NCBI GenBank assembly: GCA_017427065.1
Contig: JAFRTL010000022.1
Location: 28,695-92,694, forward strand
Length of the DNA: 64,000 nt
Origin: Bacteroidaceae bacterium
Lineage (GTDB): Bacteria; Bacteroidota; Bacteroidia; Bacteroidales; Bacteroidaceae
Direction: 5' to 3'
The notes under the pieces were generated by a model, which saw only the letters and a list, made by a program, of their open reading frames with translations, did not search any database and was not told the origin of the DNA. The position numbers and the translations under genes were made by a program. Positions 18,646-47,430 of the stretch are shown in pieces; within the stretch, counting starts at the first letter, position 1; every line of letters starts with the position of its first letter.

Positions 18646-19983
18646 TTATTTCACTTTATAGGCAGCCAAGTATTCCCCATGACGCACATACATGATGCCA
18701 TTGCTGACAACGATGTGAGCCCAATTAGGACCAGATCCCTTAGTAATGCGGAACTCGCTCACCACATCAAACTTATCTTTCGTAGGACGAACTAAGCCCA
18801 CGAAACCTCTACGCTCATCGTAGGTGTAGAGCATGCCATCAGCATAGACCGTTGACCCCTTGCCCTTACCTCCACTCCAAGCCTCGTTGTAGAGGGTTTT
18901 ACCTGTAGCGAAGTCTACTGCGACCCAGTTTCCGCTGGTGTTGTTCACCCAGTTGGATCCATAAACCACACCGTCAACGAGCACATAGCCACCATGATGG
19001 GTGCTAAGGTCGTCGTTTTTCCATGCCACGCTGACGCTCTTCAGGTCGTCTGCCAACTTGAAGGCTGTAGTATTGATGCCATAGCCCTGTGAGAAGACCA
19101 GGATACCGTCCTTGAAAATAGGACCATTAGGGCAGATGTTCTCCCAAGGTGAAGATGGATACCATCCAGTGGCTGTCCACTGAATCTCACCAGTTTCCAC
19201 ATCGGCACCATAATAGAAAGTATTTGTGCCACCTACAATCTGGCGTTTGCCATTCCATGTGATAAGGGTCGGCTGCACATAGTTGCGAGATTCGCCTAAA
19301 GAACGCGACTTCCAGATTTCTGCGCCCGTTTCTTTGTCGAGAGCTACAATGGTGGTTTGGTTGCCTCCAGGACTGTAAATCACCTTATTGTCGACCACCA
19401 GAGGACATTCGGCAGTTCCCCAATTTCCTGTGGTGCTGCCATACTTGGCAGTTCCATCTACCGTCCACACGATGCTGCCATCAGCAATGTTGATGCAAGC
19501 TATCTCACCCATGCCACTAATGACATAGGCCTTACCGTCAACGATGGTCGGTGTAGTACGCGTTTCAGGATAGCTGTCTTTCCAAGGCTTTCCATAAGAG
19601 GTTTGATAGAGGGTCTTGCCAGTGCTGTCAATGGCGAAGAACACTTCCTGAGTCTTGTCTTCGTTCATGCCAGTAATATAGACAGTACCACTTAATACGG
19701 CTGGACTTGAATAGCCCTGCACCAAATCCGAATTTTCCCAAATCAGCTGAGGTCCGCCTTCTGGCCATTGTTTCAACAATCCGCTTTCAGCACTATAGAT
19801 GCCATCGCGATTAGGACCACGGAACTGTGTCACATCCTGATCAGACGAGAAGCTGATAGCTACAGTCTGCATTTCATTACCAGAGTTCTCCACGACGTTG
19901 GCTTTGGCATTGTTGCCACAACCAGTGGTAATGCCCGAACATGCAATTGTCATGCTAAGGCAGAAAAACTTAAAAATACGCAT
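18646..19983 (-). CDS. PQQ-like beta-propeller protein 1 of 3 (lipoprotein)
   Basis: The 445-residue product has a lipoprotein-like signal (ITTGC, Cys at about residue 22), then an eight-blade-type PQQ-like propeller. Blade signatures include GYSSPAV, YPETRTTPTIVDGKAYV, NWGTAECPLV, KETGAEIWKS and the C-terminal KGSGPNWAHIV with RHGEY. It is a close paralogue of the next two genes upstream. Whether it binds PQQ or is only structural, as in BamB, cannot be seen. No heme motif (CxxCH) and no methanol-dehydrogenase Cys-Cys pair are present. Last gene of the 22-gene run. Confidence 0.85.
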   Translation of the reverse strand: MRIFKFFCLSMTIACSGITTGCGNNAKANVVENSGNEMQTVAISFSSDQDVTQFRGPNRDGIYSAESGLLKQWPEGGPQLIWENSDLVQGYSSPAVLSGTVYITGMNEDKTQEVFFAIDSTGKTLYQTSYGKPWKDSYPETRTTPTIVDGKAYVISGMGEIACINIADGSIVWTVDGTAKYGSTTGNWGTAECPLVVDNKVIYSPGGNQTTIVALDKETGAEIWKSRSLGESRNYVQPTLITWNGKRQIVGGTNTFYYGADVETGEIQWTATGWYPSSPWENICPNGPIFKDGILVFSQGYGINTTAFKLADDLKSVSVAWKNDDLSTHHGGYVLVDGVVYGSNWVNNTSGNWVAVDFATGKTLYNEAWSGGKGKGSTVYADGMLYTYDERRGFVGLVRPTKDKFDVVSEFRITKGSGPNWAHIVVSNGIMYVRHGEYLAAYKVK

Positions 19984-20004
19984 AGTAAGAATATTAGTTG
20001 TTTG

Positions 20005-21267
20005 TTACTTCACTTTAAATGCCGCCATATATTCACCATGACGCACGTACATCACACCTCTATTAATAACGATGTGAGCCCAACTTGGACCGGAACCTTT
20101 GCTCACGCGGAATTCACTTACCACATCGAACTTATCTTTTGATGGGCGCACTAACCCCACGAATCCTCTGCGCTCATCGTATGTATAGAGCATGCCATCA
20201 GCTGCAACTACAGATCCCTTGCCTTTACCTCCACTCCAAGCAGTGTTGTAAAGCGTCTTGCCTGTATTCCAATCTATAGCCACCCAGTTGCCAGAGTTGT
20301 TGTTTATCCAATTGGAACCATAGACTACGCCATCTATCAGCACATATCCACCATGATGTGTGTCTAAGTCATTAGTCTTCCACACTTTTGATGCTGCAGT
20401 CATAGAGTCATTGAGTTTCACCAAATAGCCACCAGTGTCATAGCCTTCAGAGAAGAACAGTTGGCCATCCTTAAATAGCGGAGCATTCGGAGCTATGTTC
20501 TCGTAGGTGTTCGGACTTGGCCAATCAGTAAAAGTCCATTCAATGTCTCCATTGTCTGGATTAATACCAAACAATACCTGTTCGAGGCCTCCGATGATCT
20601 GACGCTTCCCGTTCCACGTCACGAGTATAGGGGAAATATAGGCACTACCGGCACGAAGTGACTTGGCTTTCCAAATCTCCTTGCCCGTTTCTTTGTCAAG
20701 AGCTACCATCGCCGTCTGGCTTCCACCAGGAGTATAGATGACCTTGTTGTCATACACCAGCGGACACTCTGCAGTACCCCAATGACCTGTCTTGCCTCCA
20801 TAGGTACTTAGTCCATCGACCTTCCACACGATCTTACCATCGGCTATGTTGATGCAAACCACTTCACCACTACCACTTACCACATAAGCCTTGCCATCAA
20901 CGATGGTAGGTGTGGTGCGCGTCTCTGGATAGGCCTGGTTCCAAGGCTTACCGTAAGCCACCGTATATACCTTTTTACCATCAAGCGAATAGGCATTAAA
21001 TGTCTCTGCCGACTCATTCTCATTCATTCCAGTGACGTAGAGTTTGTCACCTACTATCACAGGAGTGGAATAACCCTTACCTACATCGTTGGTTTCCCAC
21101 AGCATCTCAGGACCATCTGCAGGCCACTGTTTCAACAATCCTGTTTCTGCATACTGACCGTCACGTGCGGGACCACGGAAGGTATTCATGTCTTGTGCTG
21201 AAATACCCAGCACGCAAAAGTTCAAGACTACGATACCTAAAACTTTCTTTTTAATTAAGTCATTCAT
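20005..21267 (-). CDS. PQQ-like beta-propeller protein 2 of 3
   Basis: The 420-residue protein has a Sec signal peptide (ending GISAQ) and no lipid-anchor Cys, so it is predicted soluble in the periplasm. After NTFRGPARDGQYAETGLLKQWP it shares the same blades as its neighbours: GYSTPVIV, YPETRTTP, HWGTAECPL, THHGGYVLIDG, YDERRGFVGLV. Tandem duplication is evident. The gaps of 19 and 21 bases on either side fit one transcript. Function unknown; ligand or partner binding is likely given the conserved face motifs. Confidence 0.85.
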   Translation of the reverse strand: MNDLIKKKVLGIVVLNFCVLGISAQDMNTFRGPARDGQYAETGLLKQWPADGPEMLWETNDVGKGYSTPVIVGDKLYVTGMNENESAETFNAYSLDGKKVYTVAYGKPWNQAYPETRTTPTIVDGKAYVVSGSGEVVCINIADGKIVWKVDGLSTYGGKTGHWGTAECPLVYDNKVIYTPGGSQTAMVALDKETGKEIWKAKSLRAGSAYISPILVTWNGKRQIIGGLEQVLFGINPDNGDIEWTFTDWPSPNTYENIAPNAPLFKDGQLFFSEGYDTGGYLVKLNDSMTAASKVWKTNDLDTHHGGYVLIDGVVYGSNWINNNSGNWVAIDWNTGKTLYNTAWSGGKGKGSVVAADGMLYTYDERRGFVGLVRPSKDKFDVVSEFRVSKGSGPSWAHIVINRGVMYVRHGEYMAAFKVK

Positions 21268-21286
21268 TTATTTATAAATTTAGTTG

Positions 21287-22573
21287 TTATTTAATTGAAA
21301 AGGCGGCAAAATACTCACCATGCCGAATGTACAATACTCCGTTATTGATAACAGGATGAGCCCAGCTGGGACCAGAACCTTTGGTGATACGGAATTCGCT
21401 AACTACATCGAATTTCTCACGACTAGGTTTAACAAGTCCTACGAAACCACGACGTTCATCGTAAGTGTAGAGCATGCCATCACAGTAGATGATAGAGCCT
21501 TTGCTCTTGCCACCACTCCAAGCGTTTTCCCACAACGTCTGTCCTGTATTCCAATCAATAGCTACCCAGTTTCCGCTAGTATTGTTTATCCAGTTAGAAC
21601 CATAGATCACACCATCAAGTAGAATCTGATGGCCATGATGCGTGTCAAGATCTTCATTTTTCCATACAAGTGACACTGCCGTAGCATCATCATTAAGCTT
21701 CAGCTTCATAGCTCCCATATCATAGCCATTGGAAATGAAAATCTCACCTTCATTATATATAGGAGTATTAGGAGCTATAGACTCAAATCCTCTGGAACGA
21801 TCTTCGGAATTGCGTCCCCAGTCGTTATATTTCCAAACGATATGTCCATCGTCAGGATTCACACCGATCACTGTGTTTTGCGTTACACTGACTATCTGTC
21901 TATGTCCATTGTGCGTCAGCAGTAAAGGAGATGTATAATTACTCTGCTCATGCAATGACTCAGACTTCCACAGCACAGAGCCATCAGCCTTGCTTAAAGC
22001 GACCATGGTGGTCTCATCGCCTCCAGGCATGAAAACTACCTTGTCATCATAGATAAGTGGGCATTCTGCAGTGCCCCAATTACCAGTCTTACGTCCAAAC
22101 AATTTATCGCCCTCAACTTTCCAAACGATGCTGCCATCATTGGTCTGAATACATACCACATCGCCTGAACCGCTGATGACATAGGCCTTGCCGTTTTCAA
22201 TGGCAGGTGTAGTTCTGGTTTCTGGATAGGACTTTGTCCATGGCGTACTATAGACGGTAGCGTAAATCTTTTGACCATCAAGAGTGAATGCATAAAACAC
22301 CTCATGGCTTTCATCCTCATCCATACCAGTAATGTAGAGTCTATCGCCTACAATAACTGGACTAGAATAGCCCTTACCTATTTCTAAAGTCTCCCATAAA
22401 AGCTGTGGTCCATCTTGAGGCCATTGCTTCAATAGCCCTGTTTCATCGTATTTGCCATCTCGATGTGGGCCTCGCCAGCCATAAATGGTTTGAGCAGTCA
22501 TACTCTGAACTCCGATGAGCAAGAATGCGAGTAAACTTAAATACTTTGTCATTTCTTTCATAACCATTTTCAT
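21287..22573 (-). CDS. PQQ-like beta-propeller protein 3 of 3
   Basis: The 428-residue protein has an N-terminal signal peptide (ending SMTAQ) and the same propeller signatures (GYSSPVIV, YPETRTTPA, NWGTAECPLIY, THHGHQIL, YDERRGFVGLV, HGEYFAAF). The start codon overlaps the stop codon of the glycosyltransferase (TAATG), pointing to translational coupling. It is the most diverged of the three tandem copies. The first ATG is used, but ATGs a few codons later would also leave a good signal peptide. Confidence 0.85.
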   Translation of the reverse strand: MKMVMKEMTKYLSLLAFLLIGVQSMTAQTIYGWRGPHRDGKYDETGLLKQWPQDGPQLLWETLEIGKGYSSPVIVGDRLYITGMDEDESHEVFYAFTLDGQKIYATVYSTPWTKSYPETRTTPAIENGKAYVISGSGDVVCIQTNDGSIVWKVEGDKLFGRKTGNWGTAECPLIYDDKVVFMPGGDETTMVALSKADGSVLWKSESLHEQSNYTSPLLLTHNGHRQIVSVTQNTVIGVNPDDGHIVWKYNDWGRNSEDRSRGFESIAPNTPIYNEGEIFISNGYDMGAMKLKLNDDATAVSLVWKNEDLDTHHGHQILLDGVIYGSNWINNTSGNWVAIDWNTGQTLWENAWSGGKSKGSIIYCDGMLYTYDERRGFVGLVKPSREKFDVVSEFRITKGSGPSWAHPVINNGVLYIRHGEYFAAFSIK

Positions 22574-23856
22574 TATGTTAAATCATTGATAATTGTTTCT
22601 AACTTGCTTGCTGCCACATCTATATTATAGCGCTCAGCTGCTAGTTTCTTTGCAGAATGGCTGCATTGCTCCCACAAACCATTTGTAAGGAACAGGTTCT
22701 CTAATGTCTTTGCAAGCGTTTCTGCATCATTAGGCTCATAAATCAAGCCTGCCGTATCCACTATTTCATTGAAAGAACCAATGTAAGGTTCTACTGCTGG
22801 AACGCCTGCTGCGAAAGCCTCAAGCAGATACAGCCCTACACTTTCTTCAAATTGAAGAGGTACTGCTATGACAGAAATCTGTTTATAAAAAGCAGCATGG
22901 TGCTCCCAATTATATGTCTCCTCTATAGTTACATCGCTTTTGTAAGGTGCCAACAGTTTGCGGATTTTGCTTAAAAACGCCTTGTCCTGAGAAGTGTATC
23001 CTCCGCCAATGCGCAACTTCAGTCTTGGAATGGTATTCCATGTCTTCAATAAAACAAAAGCCTCTGCTAAAACTTCTAATCCATCTGACTGATTCATACG
23101 ATAGAAAAAACCTATCGTTGGATCTTCTGGATGAGTGTCAATAGAATATTTCTCTATATCTACTCCAGGATAGACTACATGGACAGGTGGCGTATTATTT
23201 CCATGCGGACTCCTGTTTAATAGTGCTATCACCTTTTCTTTATAATACCGACTCGTAGTGATCACTGCATCCGTATATTTCAGATTTTCAGAAATGCCTT
23301 GCCAAGCCAATGCGGCATCCTCCTTGCGAAGTCCGTCTATCCACACTTCTTCATCTTGTGCCAGACACAAAATCTTAAGAGACGGAGCCTTTTCCTTCAA
23401 TGCCTTGGCAATGCCAACCAACATAGAAGAGGATATATAAACAGCATCTGGTTGCTCTTTATTTACAATCCAATCAATCATTTCCTGCACCATATTGCCA
23501 AAAGTCATGCCTTCTCCAGTAATCATAGATAGCGTCATATCTTCCATGCCATCACTGGTAGTGGTACCAGCCATCGACATGGCGATATCAAGCAATGGTT
23601 GAGCGCCAAGAAGTTTATTTAGCCATGCAGGCATAAGTTTGTCCTTAAAGAACTTCTGTCCCACATAATAAGAGGTGGCAGGGAAAAACAGCGGTGTATC
23701 CGCTTGAAATTCCTTCTGTCTCAGTGGGAGATAAATAGGCATGATGACCACCTGATGACCTGCACGTTTCATGGCTTGTGCCATGAGGTTGTCACGGAAG
23801 CAATTACCACAGTAATAGGCATCTCCTGAACTCGTTATGACGAAAACTATTTTCAT
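22573..23856 (-). CDS. GT4-type glycosyltransferase
   Basis: The 427-residue product has the two-domain GT-B layout: an N-terminal acceptor domain, and a C-terminal domain with VVYPGVDIEKY, RLKLRIGGGY and FEESVGLYLLEAFAAGVPAV, the nucleotide-sugar binding signature of GT4. The N terminus is unusual, SSGDAYYCGNCFRDN, with two Cys three residues apart. It has no signal peptide and should act at the cytoplasmic face of the inner membrane. Its place in the run suggests it glycosylates the lipid or a protein of the system; the acceptor is unknown. Confidence 0.85.
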   Translation of the reverse strand: MKIVFVITSSGDAYYCGNCFRDNLMAQAMKRAGHQVVIMPIYLPLRQKEFQADTPLFFPATSYYVGQKFFKDKLMPAWLNKLLGAQPLLDIAMSMAGTTTSDGMEDMTLSMITGEGMTFGNMVQEMIDWIVNKEQPDAVYISSSMLVGIAKALKEKAPSLKILCLAQDEEVWIDGLRKEDAALAWQGISENLKYTDAVITTSRYYKEKVIALLNRSPHGNNTPPVHVVYPGVDIEKYSIDTHPEDPTIGFFYRMNQSDGLEVLAEAFVLLKTWNTIPRLKLRIGGGYTSQDKAFLSKIRKLLAPYKSDVTIEETYNWEHHAAFYKQISVIAVPLQFEESVGLYLLEAFAAGVPAVEPYIGSFNEIVDTAGLIYEPNDAETLAKTLENLFLTNGLWEQCSHSAKKLAAERYNIDVAASKLETIINDLT

Positions 23857-23869
23857 GTCATTCTACATT

Positions 23870-26971: not shown

Positions 26972-26979
26972 TGATTATA

Positions 26980-27657
26980 TTATTCTCTTACTAATACCCC
27001 ATCTATCAATGTGACTATCCTTTTAGCTGCATGTGCCGTTTGATCGGAATGCGTCACCATGATGATTGTAGTTTGCAATTTTTTATTTACTAGTTGAAAC
27101 AATGAAGCTATATGCTGAGCATTGTCTTTATCCAATTGTCCTGTGGGTTCATCGGCCAAGAGTACAACAGGTTTATTAATCAAAGCCCTACAAACAGCCA
27201 CACGGCAAGCCTCTCCTCCCGATAAGGTCAGTGGGAATTGGTTTTCCAACGATGCAATGTTTGTCAACTCCATCAATTGTCTGGCCCAATTGATTTGTTC
27301 TTCTGAAACTTCATTCGCTGAAGCCATTAGTGGTAGAAGGATATTTTGTAACACATTGTATTGTGGCAACAAGCGGTGGTCTTGGAATACAAAACCTATT
27401 TTCTTATTGCGCACAGAAGCTAAATCTACATTTCCATCCAACAGCGACTGCCCTTCTAGCAGATAAGATCCAGAATCTGGTAAAAGCAAAGTACCTAAGA
27501 CATTTAATAAGGTAGTTTTTCCCGCTCCCGACTGTCCTCTAACGGCAACAAAATCCCCTTGCTCCACTTCGAAACAAAGTTGGCGGAGCACATGATTCAT
27601 TCGTGCATTTCCGTCTTTAAAAGACTTACTGATATTTTTGAGTTCAAGCAGTGCCAT
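26980..27657 (-). CDS. ABC transporter ATPase (LolD/MacB class)
   Basis: The 225-residue ATPase has Walker A RGQSGAGKTTLL, Q-loop VFQDHRLLP, signature LSGGEACRVAVCRAL, Walker B VVLLADEPTGQLD and the His switch MVTHSD. The signature continuation is EAC rather than the usual EQQ. It pairs with the FtsX permease directly downstream (8-base gap). Confidence 0.94.
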   Translation of the reverse strand: MALLELKNISKSFKDGNARMNHVLRQLCFEVEQGDFVAVRGQSGAGKTTLLNVLGTLLLPDSGSYLLEGQSLLDGNVDLASVRNKKIGFVFQDHRLLPQYNVLQNILLPLMASANEVSEEQINWARQLMELTNIASLENQFPLTLSGGEACRVAVCRALINKPVVLLADEPTGQLDKDNAQHIASLFQLVNKKLQTTIIMVTHSDQTAHAAKRIVTLIDGVLVRE

Positions 27658-27680
27658 AATACGGTATTAAACGTTAAACA

Positions 27681-28823: not shown

Positions 28824-28825
28824 AT

Positions 28826-29791: not shown

Positions 29792-29793
29792 GT

Positions 29794-32181: not shown

Positions 32182-32183
32182 AA

Positions 32184-38329: not shown

Positions 38330-39534
38330 TTCACTTTATAAGCCATTAAACTATCTCCATGTCTGATGTAAAGCACGCCCTTATGCACCACAGGATGTGC
38401 CCAATGCTGTTCAGTACCCTTTGTCACACGCACTCTACCGACAACATCCATTTTGGCATTGTGAGGCAGAATCAGTTGCACTTCTCCATTGTCACAATAG
38501 TTGAAAATCATTCCGTCTGCTGCTACAGGAACACTTTGACGGGCACGGGTTTTATGCATCAAGGTACCCGTGTTCCAATCCAAGCATACCCAATTGCGAC
38601 TTTCATTACTGCCATAGATGTAATGCCCCACCTTCACCATAGCAGAGAAGACATTCGTAAGCTCTTTGGAATCCCAAACTTTACTGATGCTTCGTCCCCC
38701 ATTCTCCAGTTTCAGCATCACCGAACCATAACCATTGCCCGTCATACAATAGAGCATACCATTTTCATAAATCGGAGAATTACATTGTTCGGTCCATCTG
38801 CTAGGGAAAGGATATGACCACAACAGCTGTCCGTTATCCGCATTCAGACCGATGATGCTATGCTCCGTGATGGTGACCACAATGGGTATTTCCATATCCG
38901 AAATATAGATGGGTGAACAATAGGCCGACGATTCACCTTTGGCTTTGGAAGTCCAAATCTGCGCCCCATTCTGTTTGTTCAATGCCACCACATTGTGCGT
39001 CTTGCCTCCAGGCGTGATAATCAACTTATCGCCTATGATCAGCGGAGCCTCATTCATACCATACTCCAGTTCCTCTGCGCCAAAATCTTTCAAAATATTC
39101 TTTTGCCACACCACATTCAAGGTAGCGGCATCCATACAAGTCAGCACCCCATGTCCACTATACTGATACAACTTGCCATCATTCAGAGTTACGGCAGCTC
39201 TTGCACCACTGTAATTGCCTACCCATTCCTGAGAATAAGGTTTCTGCTGCAGCAACTTGCCATTCATGTCAATCACCGATACAAAACCCATGTGATTGGC
39301 TCCTTTCATGCCTGTCACATAGATCTTGTCATCAAGAATACCCAGTTGCGAATACCCTTCACCAATACCATCTACAGACCACAACAAGGTTGGTCCTTCT
39401 TCTGGCCATGTCTTGAGTAATCCAGAATCGTTGTACGTTCCTGAACGATCTACTCCACGCCATTCCACGACTCGTTGAGCCGAGACACTGATGGCTGTCA
39501 TCGCCATTAGGATCATTAGCAATTTCTTATTCAT
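38326..39534 (-). CDS. PQQ-like beta-propeller protein, soluble periplasmic
   Basis: The 402-residue protein has a Sec signal peptide ending ISVSAQ and propeller blades related to the three tandem copies at 18.6-22.6 kb: it shares the opening WRGVDRSGTYNDSGLLKTWP and the closing HWAHPVVHKGVLYIRHG. It is thus a fourth member of that subfamily placed at the other end of the run. It overlaps the cyclase gene by 8 bases, giving coupled expression with the terpenoid enzymes. Confidence 0.86.
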   Translation of the reverse strand: MNKKLLMILMAMTAISVSAQRVVEWRGVDRSGTYNDSGLLKTWPEEGPTLLWSVDGIGEGYSQLGILDDKIYVTGMKGANHMGFVSVIDMNGKLLQQKPYSQEWVGNYSGARAAVTLNDGKLYQYSGHGVLTCMDAATLNVVWQKNILKDFGAEELEYGMNEAPLIIGDKLIITPGGKTHNVVALNKQNGAQIWTSKAKGESSAYCSPIYISDMEIPIVVTITEHSIIGLNADNGQLLWSYPFPSRWTEQCNSPIYENGMLYCMTGNGYGSVMLKLENGGRSISKVWDSKELTNVFSAMVKVGHYIYGSNESRNWVCLDWNTGTLMHKTRARQSVPVAADGMIFNYCDNGEVQLILPHNAKMDVVGRVRVTKGTEQHWAHPVVHKGVLYIRHGDSLMAYKVK

Positions 39535-41257
39535 AGCGCTTTTTATAATAGTTACTTACTTTTTTCAATCCAATCAATAAAAAGGTGAGGCTATACAACT
39601 CCTCCGAATACCACAGACGGGAGAAATAAAGTCCTATAGGCTCTCTTTGAAATAGTTCTCCTCGCTCGTACGCCTCATAAAGGAAATCCAGTGCTCTGCC
39701 CATTGCCACTTCATTAGGCTTGTCAGCAGAAGCCAGTGCTCCCAATACTTTGGCCGTCAGTGTCACCTTGGAAGCTACGCCCTTAGCACCACCCCAGCCA
39801 CCATCTTCATTTTGTACATTTAGCAGATAAGCCAAGCCTTTATTTGCCAAAGATAACGCTTCAGGTTGACCAGCAGACAACAAGTAATCCACTGCTGTGG
39901 CGGTACCATAGACAGGCGATTTCTCATCCGCAGCATCCTGATCGCCAAACCATAATGGCGTCCAGGAACCCTCTTTAGAAAGCGCTATCTCCATCCACTC
40001 CAGAAGCCGTTTAGCTCCTTTCTCCGTCCGTGCCTTCAGTGCTGGAGGCAATACTTCTTTCCACAGCGAAAAAGCCAGAAAAGCATGCGCAGAGATGTCT
40101 GCACTGCTACGGTCGAAAGGCAGCTTACCCCATCCTTTGCAGAAGGTAGGCATACCACCATCGTTGTTTTGCAGATCCAACAGCCATTCAATGCCTTTTC
40201 CCACTTCTGGAGCATACGTTCCGCGCGTCAACACATGGAAAGCCACCAATGCACCCGACGTATCATCACCGTCGGGCACAGAACCACTAAGGTCGCTCCA
40301 TCCCCATCCACCTGGCTGTGCGCCAGTAAATGGATGTACATCTTTCGTAGAGCGTTCTTTCATATTCTCTATAAAGAAGTCACGCTCTGGCAAATCCTCA
40401 TCCAATGCCCGAATACTGAGGCTCGTTACCCATCCCGATAAATCAGTATCAATGGGCCAGGCTCCATCTTCACGCACCGTATCCACCAAGAACTGCGCCG
40501 CTTTCTGAGTGACCACATGATTCCGATAGCCGGCTTGTGCCATGCACATGCTTACAAAAGCCGTCAGAGGGGCAGCCTCCAGGAAACCACCATCGGCTGG
40601 CTGAAGTTTCACCAAGACTTTCAATGAAGGTTCGATGAATCTCCTGCGCAGTGGTGCCAATAAGCCTTGCTTCCCTTTCTTGAAACGTAGAATGCCTACT
40701 GCTATCAAAGCAGGAATGGCATAACTGACTACTGGCAAATTCAAGAAACGGAACAAGCGCTGTGGCAACACCGCCAGTTCAAAAGGAAATGGCGGGATGC
40801 GTTCCCAATCAGAGATTACGCCTGCTAAGGCACACATCACGAGGATAGGCACTGAGAAAGTGAGATCGGTGCCGTAGTAATCTAACACTCCTTGGATGAT
40901 GTCTTCATCAGTCTCTCCACCAAAACGTTCCTTCAAGTAAACTTGTGTCTTTTCCGACCTCACCCCAACGGCATACAGCGAAGCATATGTCAAGAGCGTC
41001 GCTGTCAGATTCGAAGGACTCTCAATGCTGTCGCCCCAAGAACCGTCGGCCTTCATCGTTCGTTGCAACCATGCCACACCATCCGCGATCTGACGGTCGT
41101 ATGTCTGAGCATCTATCTCATGTAAGGCAAATACCGAAACCGATGTCGATATGGCACTGGAAGAAAGCTTCCCTCGCCATATCTTACCTTCCTCGCGCTT
41201 GCTCAGCAAAGCCTCAGAAGTTACTTTAATCATTTTGTCTATCTGCCTTATATTCAT
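39527..41257 (-). CDS. class II terpene cyclase-like protein (squalene-hopene cyclase fold)
   Basis: The 576-residue product is built of QW-type repeats (VAWLQRTMKADGSWGDS, FLVDTVREDGAWP, IEWLLDLQNNDGGMP, LAYLLNVQNEDGGWGG) that form alpha/alpha toroids. The catalytic motif is intact: GGWGWSDLSGSVPDGDDT, with DXDD at residues 329-332, in the same context as the DXDDT of squalene-hopene cyclase, where the central Asp protonates the substrate. Length is slightly under SHC (about 630). Moderately hydrophobic stretches (135-190) may bind the membrane. The substrate is probably the product of the polyprenyl synthetase in the same operon. ATGA overlap with the upstream gene. Confidence 0.88.
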   Translation of the reverse strand: MNIRQIDKMIKVTSEALLSKREEGKIWRGKLSSSAISTSVSVFALHEIDAQTYDRQIADGVAWLQRTMKADGSWGDSIESPSNLTATLLTYASLYAVGVRSEKTQVYLKERFGGETDEDIIQGVLDYYGTDLTFSVPILVMCALAGVISDWERIPPFPFELAVLPQRLFRFLNLPVVSYAIPALIAVGILRFKKGKQGLLAPLRRRFIEPSLKVLVKLQPADGGFLEAAPLTAFVSMCMAQAGYRNHVVTQKAAQFLVDTVREDGAWPIDTDLSGWVTSLSIRALDEDLPERDFFIENMKERSTKDVHPFTGAQPGGWGWSDLSGSVPDGDDTSGALVAFHVLTRGTYAPEVGKGIEWLLDLQNNDGGMPTFCKGWGKLPFDRSSADISAHAFLAFSLWKEVLPPALKARTEKGAKRLLEWMEIALSKEGSWTPLWFGDQDAADEKSPVYGTATAVDYLLSAGQPEALSLANKGLAYLLNVQNEDGGWGGAKGVASKVTLTAKVLGALASADKPNEVAMGRALDFLYEAYERGELFQREPIGLYFSRLWYSEELYSLTFLLIGLKKVSNYYKKRYE

Positions 41258-42120
41258 AATGTTCCTAAAGCCAATAATCCATAAAACACATACTCCACAT
41301 CACTCGCATCATCCAGCAGTGTAGCCGCAAAGCCACCGTTGTCCAGCCAATGGGAAGTGATGAAATCCGTGGCATTAAAACGCGGTTTTACCTGATACTG
41401 TTTTAGTACGAAAAGGGCTGTAGCCGTGGATAATAAATCAGCCATAGGCACAACTTCCGACGCCTTGAAACCGCCATTGTCTTCCTGCATTTCCCTCAAG
41501 GCATCCACCTCCGCATTTAGCTTCCAACCATCGGTTTGCCCCTTCAGTGAGAGGGCTGCAGCTGTCGCATTAAGGTTGGGCATCTCTTGTGCTGGCGAAT
41601 TGGCATATCCCTTCCCTTTCACACGATAGGCTTCCAAATCAGTCGTATCCAACGCTTCCTCATTACTGGTATCTTCCAGCAAGCCCCTCCAGATGAACTG
41701 ACTATAGGGATTGTGAATATCCCCTTGGGGAACTTCCCGGAAAGAAGTCAGCGGACGAATCTCCCGTCGCTTACTCCCTGTGACTGCCATGAGTAGCTTC
41801 CCCTTATCCATCAACTCGTCAAGCAAGCAGCAACGCATCAAAGCTGCATAATCAATCAATCCCAACCGATCAGCTTGCCAACGATCCAAAAAAGCTTTAC
41901 GTTTCTTCGTATCCAGTTCCAAGCCCAAGACATAGGAAAGCAACCACCCGAATGCCGTATAATACAAATCAGGTTCGCCGCTCTTATTCTTGAAAGCCAC
42001 ATCACCATCCACCCGCTGACTCTCCACAAAGCGAGAAACCTGTGCAAACGCTTCCGCACTCAGCAGTTCCTTACCTGCTGTCAGTGTGCGTAGCAATCGT
42101 ATGGAGAGCGTTTCTTTCAT
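41254..42120 (-). CDS. prenyltransferase beta-subunit-like alpha/alpha toroid
   Basis: The 288-residue product has the helical repeat pattern of protein prenyltransferase beta subunits and small terpene cyclase domains: VESQRVDGDVAF, YYTAFGWLLSYVLG, LREMQEDNGGFKASE, HWLDNGGFAATLLDD with following helices. I see no DXDD motif and no clear zinc site (Asp, Cys, His), so it may be a non-catalytic partner of the cyclase encoded next to it, or bind a prenyl chain. It overlaps both neighbours by 4 bases. Confidence 0.75.
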   Translation of the reverse strand: MKETLSIRLLRTLTAGKELLSAEAFAQVSRFVESQRVDGDVAFKNKSGEPDLYYTAFGWLLSYVLGLELDTKKRKAFLDRWQADRLGLIDYAALMRCCLLDELMDKGKLLMAVTGSKRREIRPLTSFREVPQGDIHNPYSQFIWRGLLEDTSNEEALDTTDLEAYRVKGKGYANSPAQEMPNLNATAAALSLKGQTDGWKLNAEVDALREMQEDNGGFKASEVVPMADLLSTATALFVLKQYQVKPRFNATDFITSHWLDNGGFAATLLDDASDVEYVFYGLLALGTL

Positions 42121-43694
42121 TCTTTCTTAGTGTCCAATATACGTTCGGTGATTCTGAAAAGCAAGCGTTTCAGTTCCACATTTTTCAAGGAATATAAAGC
42201 CCCTATCGCCTCTTGATGATAGACTTCCACCAATGCTCTGACGCGCTCCAAAGCTCGCTCCAGTCTTGGCCGATGCTCTTCCATGTTCAAGAAGGCTTTG
42301 ATGTCTACACTGTGCAGCAATTCCTCAATGAACACCCCCGGATTGTCTTCGCACAATACGGCTAACACGGACGACGGTCGCAGTTCTAATTTATCAGAAC
42401 CAGCGAAATCTTCCACATCGTCTTGCAACTGATAAGCCACGCCGAGGGCACTACTAAATTCATGGAAAATCTGTCGTATTTGCAGCTCTTCCCCCGCACA
42501 AATCAAACCCAGTTGCAACGACACCTCAAAAGCTGGCACTGTCTTCTTGCGGAAGATGTCTAACACTTCTTCTAAGGTCACCGGACGGGGCTGATTGCTC
42601 CATTCCAGTTCCATGCCTTGGCCTTGGCACAATTTCACATGTGCCTGCGCCACTTCTGCCAAGAGAGAAGCATGCGTACACTGACTGAGGAGCCTATAGC
42701 CTTCACCCAATAAAGCATCGCCTATATTGATGGCCATGGGGACCCCATGCGTCACATGTACCGTGGGTTTCCCATAGCGAGTCTCATCATTGTCCTGAAT
42801 GTCATCATGCACCAAGGAAGCTTTGTGGAAGCACTCCACACCGATGGCCGCACGCTTCACGTCCTCACTGACTTCATCCTTGCCCGAAAGTGCCTTATAA
42901 GCGGCAGCCAACAGGTACGGTCTCCAACGCTTACCATCGCTTCCCATCCATTGAAAGGCCGTTTCCATCGTCAGTTTCTCGTCAGAAAGCAGGTATTTAC
43001 GCAGATGCGCAGGTGCAAACCATTGCTGCACCTCCCGTCTCAATTGTTCATAATCCAGCAGATACGCCTCCTCCCCTTCACGCATCGACATCAGCTCCAT
43101 CACATAGCCCGTATCAACTTCGGTGTCTTTACAGCCATCGTAATTCAACGGAATGGCCATACCAGGCACGGCATGACTGATAAGCAGCGGGAATGCCTTC
43201 TCTAAAGAATTTAGGCAACTCACGCCTATCACACAATCCACCACACGGTTCTTGATCAGTTCCACCACCGAGGTGAAACCTTCGGCCACCAGACTCATCA
43301 TGCCCAGTTCCTCGGCTTTTTGCTCAAGACTTGGAATCACACACCTGCCACAGCGGTGACAGAGCAATCCGAATTCATCCATCTCAGCCTCACATTTAAC
43401 CGAATGACTGAGACACTTTGGCAACAGCAACAAGCGTCGTTCATATGGGATCGTTGCCACGAAATGCTTCCATGCCTGGTTATGAATCTCCACCATCAGC
43501 CAGCCACTGAAAGATGCAGGCAATGCCCTCTCCTCCATCACTTGCGTAGCAATGGCAGAAAGATCGTCCATCGAAAGCGGAGGCTGAACCTTTAGGCTCC
43601 CCACCCGTTCTGCTATAAGCTTTCGGAGTTCCATACGCTCCAAGAGCATCGTTGGTACCTCGTATATCTGTCTGGTCACATTCGTTTTATCCAT
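42117..43694 (-). CDS. DUF116-polyprenyl synthetase fusion
   Basis: The N-terminal part is DUF116-like, with LLPKCLSH and CHRCGRC (about residues 94-121 of the longer frame) and further Cys, probably an Fe-S or metal site. The C-terminal part (from about 240) is a trans-isoprenyl diphosphate synthase with GKRWRP, first Asp-rich motif DDIQD (300-304) and second DDVED (428-432). All catalytic Asp are kept. It should condense IPP with an allylic diphosphate; the product length cannot be read off. Start at ATG 43694, overlapping the radical SAM stop by 8 bases; the longer frame begins with TTG. The fusion is unusual and links redox chemistry to chain synthesis. Confidence 0.88.
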   Translation of the reverse strand: MDKTNVTRQIYEVPTMLLERMELRKLIAERVGSLKVQPPLSMDDLSAIATQVMEERALPASFSGWLMVEIHNQAWKHFVATIPYERRLLLLPKCLSHSVKCEAEMDEFGLLCHRCGRCVIPSLEQKAEELGMMSLVAEGFTSVVELIKNRVVDCVIGVSCLNSLEKAFPLLISHAVPGMAIPLNYDGCKDTEVDTGYVMELMSMREGEEAYLLDYEQLRREVQQWFAPAHLRKYLLSDEKLTMETAFQWMGSDGKRWRPYLLAAAYKALSGKDEVSEDVKRAAIGVECFHKASLVHDDIQDNDETRYGKPTVHVTHGVPMAINIGDALLGEGYRLLSQCTHASLLAEVAQAHVKLCQGQGMELEWSNQPRPVTLEEVLDIFRKKTVPAFEVSLQLGLICAGEELQIRQIFHEFSSALGVAYQLQDDVEDFAGSDKLELRPSSVLAVLCEDNPGVFIEELLHSVDIKAFLNMEEHRPRLERALERVRALVEVYHQEAIGALYSLKNVELKRLLFRITERILDTKKE

Positions 43695-44904
43695 AGGCTC
43701 CAAAACCGAAGAAATAGCGTTTCTTCAAGAAACGGTAAAACACATTCTGCTCGGGGATGGCCTGTTCTGCCATATCATGGCTGGCCACAGGACGCATCTT
43801 CCGATATTCTTCCAACACCGTGCCCCTACTCGTGGTATCCACGGCTTCAGGTTCTCCTTCCAGCAGTTCCACCAGTTTGTCAGGACTATCCATTAAGATA
43901 CACCCACGAGTGGTCTCTGCAATCTTACGACGCATACGCGCCAAAAATGCAGAGTTGCAGATCTCAGCCAGATTGGACGCATCTTCATTTAGAAAATCAG
44001 TAGCCATTTGGAATGGCGGACAGAATTCCAAAGCGCCCGATGGAGAAATATGATGGCTCATGCCCGTAGCCCCGGGACACATTGCCTTTCCCTTATCGTC
44101 CCAATATGTATCAATAATAAACAGCGGCGCATCCTTTCGTTGTTCGGCGATGAACGACCGTAAGGCGAAAATTTTATCTTGTGTCAAGGCATTCTCGACA
44201 TTAGGCTCTGAGCCAACGGGACGATAGATGTAATACCATAGATACATCGCTCCTTCTTTGGAAATGCGCTCTATGTAAGCCCTGTTCACCAGATCGTCAA
44301 AGTTGCTCATACAAATGCTGCAAGCCGCTCCGAAAATCAGTTTGGCTTTCCGACAGGCACGCACGCCTCTCAAGGTACGGTCAAACACGTCATCCCGCTG
44401 ACGGCGCAGATCACTCTCCTCCTCCAAACCTTCGATGCTGATAAGAGGCGTGACATTGCCTAACTTCTTCAGTCGCATGGCAATGTCATCCGTGATCAAG
44501 GTGCCGTTGGTAAACAACTGGAAGTAGCAGTCGCTGTGCTTCTCCATCACCTCCAGCAGTCCTTTGTACATCAATGGTTCGCCACCTAAGATGCCATAGA
44601 AATAAGCCCCCCGTTTCTTCCCCTCACGGATGATGCCATCCAGCTGCTTTACAGACAACTGTTTCCTTCCACCACGACTCACCCAACAACCTTTGCAGGC
44701 CAGATTACAGGTTTCCGTCACAGAGATCATCAAAAATGCAGGAAAGAATGGATCGTCGTTTGCTAAGCGCTTTTCAAAGGCATCCATGGACCTATAGCTC
44801 CGCCAGACGAAGTTGTACATAAACTTCCAAATCAGTCTTGGCGTCGTCACTTGGAAAATGCGCAAGGCCGCCTTCGTGGTTGCTATGTAATCATGTAGCG
44901 TCAT
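43687..44904 (-). CDS. radical SAM enzyme
   Basis: The 405-residue protein has the [4Fe-4S]-SAM motif CNLACKGC (Cys66, Cys70, Cys73), the GGEPL motif, and downstream Cys in AMCPGATG and LEFCPPF that may bind a second cluster (SPASM or twitch type). The layout resembles peptide- or lipid-modifying radical SAM enzymes such as those of the HpnH or PqqE groups, without a decisive match. In an operon with a polyprenyl synthetase and a cyclase, C-C bond formation or methylation on an isoprenoid is a plausible task. Electrons could come from the ferredoxin encoded 4 bases upstream. Confidence 0.88.
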   Translation of the reverse strand: MTLHDYIATTKAALRIFQVTTPRLIWKFMYNFVWRSYRSMDAFEKRLANDDPFFPAFLMISVTETCNLACKGCWVSRGGRKQLSVKQLDGIIREGKKRGAYFYGILGGEPLMYKGLLEVMEKHSDCYFQLFTNGTLITDDIAMRLKKLGNVTPLISIEGLEEESDLRRQRDDVFDRTLRGVRACRKAKLIFGAACSICMSNFDDLVNRAYIERISKEGAMYLWYYIYRPVGSEPNVENALTQDKIFALRSFIAEQRKDAPLFIIDTYWDDKGKAMCPGATGMSHHISPSGALEFCPPFQMATDFLNEDASNLAEICNSAFLARMRRKIAETTRGCILMDSPDKLVELLEGEPEAVDTTSRGTVLEEYRKMRPVASHDMAEQAIPEQNVFYRFLKKRYFFGFGAYG

Positions 44905-44908
44905 CTGT

Positions 44909-45613
44909 TTATTTCTTTTTTAGCAGAGAGACGCCAGCCCTACGTGCGACCAGACGTTCTCTCAAAGCCTCATTATATAGTTGTTTTGTGTCTATCTTTA
45001 TGTTCACTTCCTCCTGTGCCTCCCCGCCATTGATAGGCGCAGTGGCATGCTTGGGGAAGATCACAGCTTCTTGCGGACACGTACGCGCACAAGCCGGACA
45101 GTTGTTCTTGCAACTGTGTGGATCGGTCACCTGTACGTTTCCATCTTCATCGAGCGTATAAACGCCAAAGAGACAGAAATCGTGACATTTTCCACAAGAT
45201 ACACAACGTTCACGGTCGATGATCGGGAACCAGGCATCGTGTCCTTGCTTCGTTGGAAAGTCAGCCAACTCCCTGCGATACTCCTCCAAGAGTTCTTCCG
45301 AAACCTCGTTTGGCTTGATGCCCAACTGTGTCGCCACCTCTTCCACCGTATGGGTACGCAGATTCAATACTTCGGGTGCCAGTAAGCCTCTCCATGCCAT
45401 CAACGAATGCACGGCCCTTTCGTGGCAAGCGATCACGACTTTGCCTTCCAAAGCCCTAAAAGCCTCCTCTTGGTCTTCTGCCATTTCACAGAGATCAGGC
45501 ACCACTTGCACCTCAAAGCCCTTCAGCTTCAAGAGCGCAGCGATGCGCGCCACCTTCTCCTTTTCCATGAAGTGACGAGACACACAGCCACATATAATGA
45601 ACTCCTTACTCAT
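44909..45613 (-). CDS. two-cluster ferredoxin with extra N-terminal domain
   Basis: The 234-residue product has a N-terminal domain of about 120 residues starting SKEFIICGCVSRHF, of unknown fold, then two 4Fe-4S motifs, CVSCGKCHDFC (with the fourth Cys in the other motif) and CKNNCPACARTCP, and a charged tail. It is cytoplasmic. It is the first gene after the LytS/LytTR pair and is followed at 4 bases by the radical SAM gene, so supplying electrons to that enzyme is the natural guess. I start at ATG 45613; the frame open to 45637 overlaps the regulator gene. Confidence 0.85.
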   Translation of the reverse strand: MSKEFIICGCVSRHFMEKEKVARIAALLKLKGFEVQVVPDLCEMAEDQEEAFRALEGKVVIACHERAVHSLMAWRGLLAPEVLNLRTHTVEEVATQLGIKPNEVSEELLEEYRRELADFPTKQGHDAWFPIIDRERCVSCGKCHDFCLFGVYTLDEDGNVQVTDPHSCKNNCPACARTCPQEAVIFPKHATAPINGGEAQEEVNIKIDTKQLYNEALRERLVARRAGVSLLKKK

Positions 45614-45618
45614 AATTA

Positions 45619-46377
45619 TCACACTCGCTCCATCCACTGCTTGAACTCCGATGCACGGTTCTTACTAATATAAATAGGCTCAGGCACCTCGGTCTTCATA
45701 TTCACGCGCAGACGCCCGTCAAACCACACGGAGATATCCTTCACCCCTTCCCGATTGATGATAAACTGCCGATTGGCACGGATAAAGTCGACAGGATTCA
45801 ATGTGGCAAAGATCTGGTCCAACTGACTGCGCAACGGATAAGTCTGTCCATCCATCAGCGTCACGCTGGTCTTATGGTCGGTATAATAGAAAAACGCCAC
45901 CTCCGTCATGGGCACAGGCAGCAGCTTGTCCCGATACTGCAAGATGATCTTGTCGCGATAGTTGGTCACAGGCGCCATCTTCAGTTGTGCCATCTGTTCC
46001 AGATAACGTTCGGTGTCCTGGTGCCCCCATTTCTTGAACTTCTGCAAGGCCGCCTCCATATCCTTCGGATGGATGGGCTTCAGCAAATAGTCGATGCTGT
46101 TCACCTTGAACGCCTCGATAGCATACTCGTCATACGCCGTGGTGAAGATGATGGGCACCTCCACTTCTGTCTGAGTGAAGATGGCAAAAGCAGAGCCATC
46201 ACTCAGATGGATATCCATAAAAATAAGGTCGGGCTTCGGATGACTTTCCAGCCACCGGATGGTTTGCCCCACACCTTCCGTGTTCCCAACAATTTCTATC
46301 ATCGGGTCTATGCTTGCCAAGATACTCACCAAGTTATCATAAGCAGCCGTCTCATCTTCAACTATCAGAACTCTCAT
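45619..46377 (-). CDS. LytTR-family response regulator
   Basis: The 252-residue protein has a receiver domain (VEDE, phospho-acceptor Asp55 in IFMDIHLSDG, and the conserved TAYDEYAIEAF and LLKPI) and a C-terminal LytTR DNA-binding domain (about 150-250, with the FIRANRQFIINREGV signature). It is 6 bases after the sensor kinase gene and 5 bases before the ferredoxin gene. Its place at the head of the run makes it the likely activator of the whole operon. Confidence 0.93.
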   Translation of the reverse strand: MRVLIVEDETAAYDNLVSILASIDPMIEIVGNTEGVGQTIRWLESHPKPDLIFMDIHLSDGSAFAIFTQTEVEVPIIFTTAYDEYAIEAFKVNSIDYLLKPIHPKDMEAALQKFKKWGHQDTERYLEQMAQLKMAPVTNYRDKIILQYRDKLLPVPMTEVAFFYYTDHKTSVTLMDGQTYPLRSQLDQIFATLNPVDFIRANRQFIINREGVKDISVWFDGRLRVNMKTEVPEPIYISKNRASEFKQWMERV

Positions 46378-46383
46378 AAATCG

Positions 46384-47406
46384 TCAATTTAAAGGCAATT
46401 TAACCACAAACCACTTCCCTTCATCATCCACTTGGATACTCTGCTCCATCAACAGCTGGAAGCGACTCTGAAGATTATTCAAGCCCGTCCCGTTAGTCCT
46501 ACTAGGCGCCAGTTTCGGACACAAGGCATTCCGCACCATCAATTCCTTTGGCGCACTCATGCCGATGTGCACTGTCATAGGATGCTCACTGTCGATGGTG
46601 TTATGCTCCACCACATTCTCAATCAGAGGCAACAGCGAAAGCACAGGCAACTTCAGTACCCTTTGGTCTTCAGGCACCTCGATGTTAAACTTCAGTTTGT
46701 CGCCATAGCGCACCTCCATCACCTGACTGAAGGCATCCAAGAAATCAAGCTCCTCCTGCAGAGTCACCAATCCCCTCTTCTCGCTTTGCAAGATGTAGCG
46801 GAAGATGTCACTGAGGTTGTTCACATACGACAGCGTCTTTTCGTCATCCCCTTTCCGCACCAAGGCCGATACACCATTCAGAGAGTTGAAGAAGAAATGC
46901 GGGTTGATTTGATTGGTCAGCGCCTTCAGCCGACTCTCCAGATTCTCAATCTTCAGTTGTTCGATTTCCTGTTCCTTGCTACGCTGATACTCAAACAGTT
47001 CGAAGATATACCCCAGCATCGCACAGATAAGTCCCGAGGTAAGGAACTGCATCACCACCAGTGTGTTGGGCATATCCATCGTTTCCGTCAGAAAGCTGAG
47101 CGCAATATACAACAGCAGACCAATGGCAGAGATAACCAAACTCTTCAGCATACGGTTGGAGAGCGACAGTTTCTTCTGGAACTTCAGGTTTATGCGCAAC
47201 AGCAGCCACACAAAGAGCCAGTAGAAAACAAATCGCGCCACGAAGAGTACGATGTAGAAATACAGACTACGGTCGTGAAACATGGGGAACGTCAGCTCAC
47301 ACCACAGCCACGACGCATTTGGATAAATCACGAAAATGGTACAGATCAAGGAAAGCAGCCAAGGCTTGTCCTTGATAGAAAGAATATTTTTGTCAACACT
47401 GTTCAT
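46384..47406 (-). CDS. LytS-type sensor histidine kinase
   Basis: The kinase has four N-terminal membrane segments (residues to about 140), a short coiled coil, then the His_kinase domain with the phospho-acceptor in LTNQINPHFFFNSLNGV and a degenerate ATPase domain with LLPLIENVVEHN. There is no periplasmic sensing domain, so the membrane part itself must sense the signal, for example lipid, quinone or membrane state. I start at ATG 47406; ATG 47410-47412 two codons earlier is equally possible. A -7 element lies at 47431-47438. Confidence 0.92.
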   Translation of the reverse strand: MNSVDKNILSIKDKPWLLSLICTIFVIYPNASWLWCELTFPMFHDRSLYFYIVLFVARFVFYWLFVWLLLRINLKFQKKLSLSNRMLKSLVISAIGLLLYIALSFLTETMDMPNTLVVMQFLTSGLICAMLGYIFELFEYQRSKEQEIEQLKIENLESRLKALTNQINPHFFFNSLNGVSALVRKGDDEKTLSYVNNLSDIFRYILQSEKRGLVTLQEELDFLDAFSQVMEVRYGDKLKFNIEVPEDQRVLKLPVLSLLPLIENVVEHNTIDSEHPMTVHIGMSAPKELMVRNALCPKLAPSRTNGTGLNNLQSRFQLLMEQSIQVDDEGKWFVVKLPLN

Positions 47407-47430
47407 ATGCATCTACTATTTATCAAGGAA

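What the first reader, a model, noticed from the sequence alone, without database searches (positions are those of the whole stretch)
18646..47412. A 22-gene run joins NADH oxidation, transmembrane Fe-S transfer, terpenoid synthesis and eight beta-propellers
Seen: from the LytS gene to the last propeller all 22 genes are on one strand, and nearly all overlap or are within 23 bases. Known: NuoEF-type proteins oxidise NADH, NapH/NapG-type proteins move electrons to the periplasm, DXDDT cyclases make cyclic isoprenoids, PQQ-like propellers serve as dehydrogenases or scaffolds. Inferred: the run makes a cyclised isoprenoid (redox carrier or modified lipid) and a NADH-driven electron path to propeller proteins outside the inner membrane, with ABC and glycosyltransferase steps for export or decoration. 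I do not recognise any described pathway with this gene set, and neither a terminal oxidase nor PQQ synthesis genes are present.
Basis: partly seen in the sequence, partly recalled or inferred. Interest (0 to 1): 0.95.

Follow-up and report, generated by a model that had tools for sequence, protein, structure and literature searches.

The report
Conserved terpenoid-plus-electron-export gene cluster
A run of 22 bacterial genes that looks able both to build a ring-closed isoprenoid lipid and to move electrons between NADH and the space outside the inner membrane recurs, largely in the same order, in distantly related bacteria, and our searches found no described pathway that matches it.

Summary
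In detail: 22 ORFs on one strand, no gap over 23 bases, families as described. The set is a real unit. In the Bacteroidota loci compared, neighbours stay adjacent almost always (g4-g5 42 of 42, g11-g12 32 of 32). One Planctomycetota contig keeps 14 of the genes in window order.

It has two separable modules. Module A (g3-g7): ferredoxin-type protein, radical SAM enzyme, DUF116-polyprenyl synthase, prenyltransferase-beta-like toroid, squalene-hopene-type cyclase with invariant PDxDDT. A CobW GTPase outside the given coordinates co-occurs with it, usually beside an aquaporin gene in Bacteroidota. Module B (g9-g15): propellers, Tat-type ferredoxin, NapH-like protein and an NADH enzyme that is Bfu-type, not plain NuoEF: all five ligands of the bifurcation-linked B2 cluster are conserved.

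A and B co-occur more than chance, yet each also occurs alone. Best reading: a Bfu-type enzyme exchanges electrons with periplasmic ferredoxin and propellers through the NapH-like protein, and module A makes a cyclised polyprenoid for that envelope system. Product, acceptor, direction and coupling are unknown. Nine literature searches found no description of the whole.

The parts
46384..47412 (-). g1, LytS-type sensor kinase
   Evidence: PF06580 E 2.1e-24; g1-g2 adjacent in 13 of 13 Bacteroidota loci with g1 and room
45619..46377 (-). g2, LytTR response regulator
   Evidence: PF04397 and PF00072; g2-g3 14 of 14
44909..45637 (-). g3, N-terminal Cys-rich domain + two 4Fe-4S; module A
   Evidence: Fer4 models just under cut-off; Cys ligands of the ferredoxin part conserved; the N-terminal domain is a separate protein in many non-Bacteroidota loci (hhalign 99.9%)
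43687..44904 (-). g4, radical SAM enzyme with three further conserved Cys (276, 295, 335); module A
   Evidence: PF04055 E 3.9e-19; C66-C70-C73 conserved
42117..43703 (-). g5, DUF116 + trans-polyprenyl diphosphate synthase fusion; module A
   Evidence: PF01976 E 6.4e-32, PF00348 E 2.8e-45; seven DUF116 Cys and both Asp-rich motifs invariant in 20 rows; model pLDDT 87
41254..42120 (-). g6, single alpha-toroid like Rab geranylgeranyltransferase beta; module A
   Evidence: best PDB profile matches RabGGTase beta, E 2.9e-10 for the whole sequence, no single stretch significant alone
39527..41257 (-). g7, squalene-hopene-type class II cyclase, DGDDT; module A
   Evidence: PF13243/PF13249; profile matches squalene-hopene cyclase E 3.2e-34 and lanosterol synthase E 1.1e-22; PDxDDT invariant in 14 rows
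38326..39534 (-). g8, exported PQQ/BamB-like propeller, variable copy number
   Evidence: PF13360; absent or doubled in relatives
36908..38329 (-). g9, membrane-anchored propeller; first gene of module B
   Evidence: PF13360; g9-g10 33 of 33
35833..36888 (-). g10, NHL-like propeller with Tat-like N-terminus and C-terminal Cys residues; module B
   Evidence: NHL-repeat PDB matches E 2.5e-19; alignment; Tat reading is mine
35242..35823 (-). g11, NapG-like multi-4Fe-4S protein with Tat-like N-terminus; module B
   Evidence: Fer4 models, weak NapG match; g11-g12 32 of 32
33989..35245 (-). g12, NapH-like transmembrane 4Fe-4S protein; module B
   Evidence: PF12801 E 6.2e-17; TIGR02163 E 6.3e-19, under its cut-off; alignment A2
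32184..33992 (-). g13, membrane-anchored propeller; module B
   Evidence: PF13360; g12-g13 27 of 27
29794..32202 (-). g14, fused BfuC-BfuB-type NADH enzyme (2Fe-2S, FMN, SLBB, 4Fe-4S); module B
   Evidence: PF01257, PF01512, PF10531, PF10589, Fer4; C641, C679, H728, C733, C738 in 22 of 25 rows, 3 rows truncated
28826..29836 (-). g15, BfuA-like 2Fe-2S/4Fe-4S protein; module B
   Evidence: PF13510, PF14691; counterparts in three other-phylum loci also carry a pyridine-nucleotide flavoprotein domain
27681..28859 (-). g16, lipoprotein-like propeller
   Evidence: PF13570 over cut-off
26980..27657 (-). g17, ABC ATPase
   Evidence: PF00005
23870..26971 (-). g18, permease with FtsX-type domains
   Evidence: PF02687, two stretches
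22573..23856 (-). g19, GT4-type glycosyltransferase
   Evidence: PF13692, PF00534
21287..22573 (-). g20, exported propeller
   Evidence: PF13360; BamB-like
20005..21267 (-). g21, exported propeller
   Evidence: PF13360
18646..19983 (-). g22, lipoprotein-like propeller
   Evidence: PF13360
18174..18530 (-). ArsR-like helix-turn-helix ORF, probable start of a second transcript
   Evidence: reading; promoter-like match 18549-18580; no orthologue found in the loci compared
17198..17986 (-). MIP, glycerol-type aquaporin (NPARD)
   Evidence: PF00230 E 5.6e-43; MIP-cobW adjacent in 8 of 8 Bacteroidota loci with MIP
16082..17167 (-). CobW/COG0523-type GTPase, accessory of module A
   Evidence: PF02492; co-occurs with g5; cobW-g3 within 3 kb in 17 of 18 non-Bacteroidota loci with cobW
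15526..16047 (-). LMW phosphatase/ArsC-like protein with signal-peptide-like N-terminus
   Evidence: PF01451, TIGR02691 below cut-off; N-termini of 4 sequences read

Best explanation
A two-module cell-envelope system. Module A (g3-g7, helped by CobW) makes a long polyprenyl diphosphate (g5), processes it with oxygen-independent Fe-S chemistry (DUF116 part, ferredoxin g3, radical SAM g4) and cyclises it from the terminal isoprene with the DxDDT cyclase g7, with toroid g6 as partner. Module B (g9-g15) is a Bfu-type NADH(/ferredoxin) enzyme (g14-g15) that exchanges electrons through the NapH-like protein g12 with the exported ferredoxin g11 and with propellers g9, g10, g13 in the periplasm. g16-g19 glycosylate and/or move the lipid or a partner to the outer leaflet. 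The cyclised lipid serves the envelope relay (anchor, carrier or matrix); in the Bacteroides-like host the net flow is most likely outward, disposing of NADH electrons. Shown here: gene content, conservation, catalytic and cluster residues, co-occurrence. Inferred: every reaction, the direction, and the use of the lipid by module B.
For: Order kept: among 85 loci compared, Bacteroidota pairs g3-g4 40 of 40, g4-g5 42 of 42, g5-g6 42 of 43, g6-g7 40 of 40, g7-g9 33 of 34, g9-g10 33 of 33, g10-g11 32 of 32, g11-g12 32 of 32, g12-g13 27 of 27, g13-g14 22 of 23, counting loci with the first gene and enough DNA beyond it. One Planctomycetota contig has g3-g7, g9-g16 and g19 in window order, and another has g9-g15, a propeller, g3, a different radical SAM protein, g5 and g6. 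Co-occurrence: 61 relatives, A in 6, B marker in 10, both in 6, Fisher 3.8e-6; 167 Planctomycetota, A 43, B 17, both 11, Fisher 4e-4, or 42, 17, 10 and 0.002 without a truncated A match. Active residues. Bfu B2 ligands: spacing 38-49-5-5 here against 38-49-6-5 computed from the published residue numbers.
Against: A without the B marker in 32 of 43 Planctomycetota genomes; B without A in 6 of 17 there and 4 of 10 relatives. Two Bacteroidota loci, L052 and L073, show no module B right after g7 (too little DNA to enter the count). In non-Bacteroidota loci g7-g9 adjacency was 0 of 15. Module A proteins g3-g5 look cytoplasmic, so no direct contact with the relay is evident. The genomes are related, so Fisher values overstate independence. 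No product, redox activity or transcript is known.
Confidence: 0.4

Rival explanations
1. Same machinery, reversed: periplasmic propeller proteins oxidise an exported or environmental substrate, electrons enter through g11-g12 and the Bfu enzyme splits them between NAD+ and ferredoxin. The module A lipid anchors the oxidase.
For: Bfu enzymes are described as reversible (passages of PMC9304861); other NapH-like conduits were found with an alcohol oxidase (passages of PMC8238504); several propellers resemble quinoprotein families weakly.
Against: The propellers match BamB better than PQQ enzymes; whether the genome can make PQQ was not settled.
Confidence: 0.2
2. Module B exists to supply electrons for finishing the module A lipid, for example reductive tailoring at the outer face of the membrane; the whole run is one biosynthetic gene cluster with export genes.
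For: Contiguity of A and B in most Bacteroidota loci compared; GT and ABC genes in the same run.
Against: B occurs without A in 4 of 10 relatives and 6 of 17 Planctomycetota with the B marker; A's own redox proteins look cytoplasmic.
Confidence: 0.2
3. Two independent systems that share regulation (LytS/LytTR) and lifestyle and have become neighbours, without a common product.
For: Each occurs without the other; in non-Bacteroidota loci g7 is not followed by g9 (0 of 15).
Against: Joined in at least three Planctomycetota contigs (L133, L134, L135) and one Lentisphaerae locus (L069) besides Bacteroidota; co-occurrence above chance.
Confidence: 0.15
4. A metal or metalloid handling system: ArsR-like regulator, aquaglyceroporin, CobW and exported ArsC-like protein point to arsenic, with the lipid as a carrier or product.
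For: Gene types at 15526-18530.
Against: The ArsR-like ORF was found in none of the loci compared and the ArsC-like gene in few; outside Bacteroidota CobW stands with g3 without them.
Confidence: 0.04

Closest known systems
Bfu family of electron-bifurcating enzymes (BfuABC/HydABC; passages of PMC9304861)
   Same: g14 has the BfuC and BfuB domains and the five B2 ligands; g15 has the minimal BfuA domain types
   Different: Fused BfuC-BfuB; g15 has no catalytic domain here and a flavoprotein domain in three other-phylum loci; partner is a NapH-like conduit. The word NapH has no occurrence in that paper's main text
NapH-like extracytosolic electron transfer systems (passages of PMC8238504), with NapGH and NosR
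   Same: Membrane 4Fe-4S protein (PF12801) with exported Fe-S partner, used with varied redox partners
   Different: Those systems were defined by flavinylation; no FMN-binding domain is among the Pfam matches of this run. Propellers and a terpenoid module are present instead
Squalene-hopene and related class II cyclase pathways
   Same: g7 matches squalene-hopene cyclase over both halves and has the DxDDT acid motif
   Different: Scores below the NCBIfam cut-offs for squalene and hopene cyclases; sits with its own fused polyprenyl synthase, radical SAM and a second toroid
DUF116-polyprenyl synthetase fusion noted in Pirellula staleyi (one passage of PMC5898192)
   Same: The same fusion
   Different: That paper suggests electron transfer for the DUF116 family and mentions the fusion in one sentence; no pathway is described in the passage seen

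Membership tests
Bfu electron-bifurcating enzymes | BfuB domains: FMN-binding 51-kDa, SLBB, NADH 4Fe-4S, ferredoxin-type 4Fe-4S | tested here: met
   Pfam counterparts PF01512, PF10589 and Fer4 over cut-off, PF10531 at the cut-off (27 bits against 27) in g14; the InterPro-to-Pfam mapping is recalled
Bfu electron-bifurcating enzymes | BfuC 2Fe-2S thioredoxin-like domain | tested here: met
   PF01257 E 1.6e-45 in g14; four Cys in 25 of 25 rows
Bfu electron-bifurcating enzymes | Five ligands of the B2 cluster, His included | tested here: met
   C641, C679, H728, C733, C738 in 22 of 25 rows, 3 truncated, several rows the same gene fetched twice; spacing agrees except 5 against 6 between His and Cys
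Bfu electron-bifurcating enzymes | BfuA with 2Fe-2S and 4Fe-4S domains | tested here: met
   g15: PF13510 and PF14691 over cut-off, C-terminal Fer4_15 at the cut-off
Bfu electron-bifurcating enzymes | Bifurcation of electrons between NAD and ferredoxin | not testable with these tools
   needs purified enzyme
NapH-like flavinylated systems | FMN-binding domain or ApbE in the cluster | tested here: not met
   no such Pfam match in the 22 genes
NapH-like proteins (wide sense) | PF12801 4Fe-4S motifs in a membrane protein | tested here: met
   PF12801 E 6.2e-17, conserved Cys
Class II (DxDD) terpene cyclases | DxDD acid motif in a two-barrel toroid protein | tested here: met
   PDxDDT invariant in 14 rows; squalene-hopene cyclase match E 3.2e-34
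Squalene-hopene cyclase (equivalog) | Score over TIGR01507 cut-off | tested here: not met
   66 bits against 431
Protein prenyltransferase beta subunit (g6) | Zinc-ligand His in the DPFHTLFG-type segment | tested here: not met
   aligned segment reads D-x-YYT-x-F in all 14 rows in a weak alignment; which residue binds zinc is recalled
PQQ-dependent dehydrogenases (propellers) | PQQ and metal site residues | not tested
   only family scores were seen; g20 matches BamB best

The most novel reading that the evidence does not exclude
Module A makes a new class of cyclised, radical-SAM-tailored isoprenoid that is itself the membrane electron carrier (or an obligate cofactor-lipid) for a new kind of NADH/ferredoxin-driven respiration, in which a Bfu enzyme works across the membrane through a NapH-like conduit onto periplasmic propellers.
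Probability: 0.2. Interest if true: 0.95.

Novelty: new variant of a known kind. Interest (0 to 1): 0.72.

Why it matters
If the anatomy means what it seems to, gut, rumen and sediment bacteria of the Bacteroidota share with Planctomycetota, Verrucomicrobiota and others an unstudied lipid pathway that needs no oxygen, and a membrane-crossing use of a Bfu-type enzyme. It would give a testable role to DUF116, to a common but unexplained set of propeller proteins, and to a CobW GTPase. The cluster is small enough to delete, and Mangrovibacterium marinum DSM 28823, a named strain, carries it (locus L027).

Tried and rejected

Searches in print (9 of 10 used). Four papers were looked into by passages only; the library lacks most subscription journals and all preprints.

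Rows left out before counts: in the tree, g5 rows of 450 residues or less and loci L014, L016, L018, L019 (81 rows used). In the Planctomycetota count of A, matches under 111 bits were left out except G428, whose match runs to a contig end; G365 (55 bits in a 512-residue frame) may be a further A. The genome-contig scan kept the best 80 of at least 561 relatives, so its phylum list is a sample.
Full report
OBSERVATION. The run is as described. Twenty-two ORFs lie on the minus strand from 47412 down to 18646; the 21 gaps run from -43 to +23 bases. I number them g1 (LytS) to g22 (last propeller) in the direction of transcription. The host is a genome of 2.5 Mb in 27 contigs, 83% complete.

IS IT A UNIT? 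Yes. g5 was searched in 61 genomes (own and relatives). A fused DUF116-polyprenyl synthase is in G000, G023, G029, G035, G059 and, at 40% identity, G052. Maps of the fetched contigs show the run nearly whole in G023, G029, G059 and G035, with changes such as missing or doubled g8. A scan of the named genome collection kept the best 80 of at least 561 relatives: 42 loci from Bacteroidota and 38 from other phyla, by record title and my sorting. Over 85 loci compared, neighbours in Bacteroidota stay together almost without exception (numbers in the evidence field). In the other phyla the module A pairs are also mostly kept: g3-g4 23 of 29, g4-g5 25 of 26, g5-g6 28 of 32, g6-g7 22 of 25, while g7-g9 is 0 of 15.

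Across phyla. In a Planctomycetota genome (G368, locus L134) the order is g3, g4, g5, g6, g7, g9, g10, g11, g12, g13, g14, g15, g16, g19, the window's order with g8, g17 and g18 missing; in G339 (L133) it is g9-g15, a propeller, g3, a different radical SAM protein, g5, g6; in G428 (L135) g9-g15 with a glycosyltransferase-like gene, a radical SAM protein, g7 and a g5 end; in a Kiritimatiellae genome (G311, L136) two propellers, g9-g15, g19, g16, g17, g18 (best BLAST hits, often 28-50% identity). In a Lentisphaerae locus (L069) module A and g10-g13 stand back to back. Of 34 non-Bacteroidota genomes with g5, 17 have a strong g12 match (at least 280 bits), and in 12 of these 17 a g14 match lies within about 5 kb on the same contig. 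In a tree of g5 the 40 labelled Bacteroidota rows lie on one side of one branch.

TWO MODULES, LINKED BUT SEPARABLE. Among 61 relatives the B marker (profile of g12, over 450 bits) is in 10 genomes, module A in 6, both in 6 (Fisher 3.8e-6, or 2.3e-5 without the window's own genome). G043, G046, G050 and G058 have the marker without g5. In 167 Planctomycetota A is in 43, the B marker in 17, both in 11 (Fisher 4e-4; 42, 17, 10 and 0.002 without the truncated match). So 32 genomes have A without the marker and 6 have the marker without A. In wide samples of the window's phylum the only strong matches were the window's own genome: the DUF116 part gave 2 of 247 (the second at E 1.6e-4) and the g12 profile gave nothing else over 71 bits in 244 genomes. 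Related genomes are not independent, so these values are guides.

WHAT LIES OUTSIDE THE COORDINATES. CobW (16082-17167) follows module A. In the 61 relatives an orthologue at 60% identity or more is in 6 genomes, 5 of which have g5; the sixth, G006, is 80% complete; g5 without CobW is G052 (Fisher 6e-6). In three of the five it lies on another contig than g5. Of 29 Bacteroidota genomes with g5, 20 have it at 47-60% identity; nine do not. In non-Bacteroidota loci cobW lies within 3 kb before g3 in 17 of 18 loci that show it, often with a GcvH-like protein (15 of 38 loci) and a free-standing copy of the g3 N-terminal domain (14 of 38). The aquaporin gene sits next to cobW in 8 of 8 Bacteroidota loci with it, and in five of six Bacteroidota loci with cobW, g1 follows within 3 kb. 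In the window these genes are preceded by an ArsR-like ORF, a promoter-like match at 18549-18580 (6 such matches in the window against 1.5 expected; 1 of 100 shuffles reached 6) and a 10-bp inverted repeat at 18587-18618 (my reading).

MODULE A, RESIDUES. g5: seven DUF116 cysteines (97, 104, 115, 118, 121, 163, 191) and both Asp-rich motifs (D300 D301 D304; D428 D429 D432) are invariant in 20 rows from seven phyla or groups. The model of g5 is good (mean pLDDT 87); the DUF116 part alone folds as a Rossmann-like domain (pLDDT 85) without a clear relative in the PDB. g4: CxxxCxxC plus Cys 276, 295, 335. g7: P328, D329, D331, D332 and T333 invariant in 14 rows; matches squalene-hopene cyclase over most of its length. 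g6: toroid nearest to Rab geranylgeranyltransferase beta. g3: ferredoxin clusters plus a separate Cys-rich N-terminal domain. From these I infer a polyprenyl diphosphate that is processed by Fe-S chemistry and cyclised by protonation. The chain length, the order of steps and the product are unknown.

MODULE B, RESIDUES. g14 carries the BfuC ligands (C97, C102, C139, C143 in 25 of 25 rows) and, in 22 of 25 rows with 3 truncated, C641, C679, H728, C733, C738. The published B2 ligands of the NiFe enzyme are C438, C476, H525, C531, C536 (passage); the spacings agree but for one residue. The paper states that the His is absent from non-bifurcating homologues (passage). g15 resembles BfuA; in three other-phylum loci its counterpart also has a pyridine-nucleotide flavoprotein domain. 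g12 is NapH-like without an FMN domain, g11 NapG-like, and g9, g10, g13 are propellers, which I read as facing the periplasm. A NapH-coupled Bfu enzyme is not named in that paper: its main text has no occurrence of NapH.

HOW IT PROBABLY WORKS. I commit to an envelope redox relay with its own lipid (0.4). Shown: content, order, residues, co-occurrence. Inferred: NADH and perhaps ferredoxin feed g14-g15; g12 conducts across the membrane; g11 and the propellers hand on to an unknown acceptor; the cyclised lipid serves this relay; GT and ABC genes finish or move it. Against it stand the genomes with one module only, two Bacteroidota loci (L052, L073) where no module B follows g7, and the lack of any product or phenotype. 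The host also has a cytochrome bd subunit elsewhere, so the relay need not be its only electron sink.

NOVELTY. Nine full-text searches found no description of this set; the fusion protein is mentioned in one sentence of PMC5898192. The parts are variants of known kinds (Bfu enzyme, NapH-like conduit, class II cyclase); their conserved union is, as far as these searches reach, undescribed. I therefore mark it a new variant of a known kind and keep the bolder reading, a new isoprenoid electron carrier, in the novel case.

Noticed in passing
window 15526-16047: An ArsC-like/LMW phosphatase protein carries a signal-peptide-like N-terminus, also in L041, L044 and L132; an exported member of this normally cytoplasmic family is odd.
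   Followed up: partly
window 14227-15495: A 422-residue protein without Pfam or NCBIfam match that I read as an outer membrane barrel; a related ORF follows cobW in G006 (L142, 8499-9017).
   Followed up: no
L071, L076, L099: A B12-type radical SAM protein (TIGR04013-like) stands where g4 would be.
   Followed up: partly
L068 and L079: A gene that looks like a cysteine desulfurase precedes the GcvH-like gene, a hint at sulfur chemistry in module A.
   Followed up: no
L082 and L091: A MAG titled Akkermansia muciniphila and one titled Pedosphaera have nearly identical loci; at least one title is likely wrong.
   Followed up: no
G043, G046, G050, G058 (relatives): Module B marker g12 at 467-485 bits without module A; may show what B does alone.
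   Followed up: no
window 1-2000: G+C drops to 0.35 against about 0.41-0.53 in the other 2-kb steps of the window.
   Followed up: no
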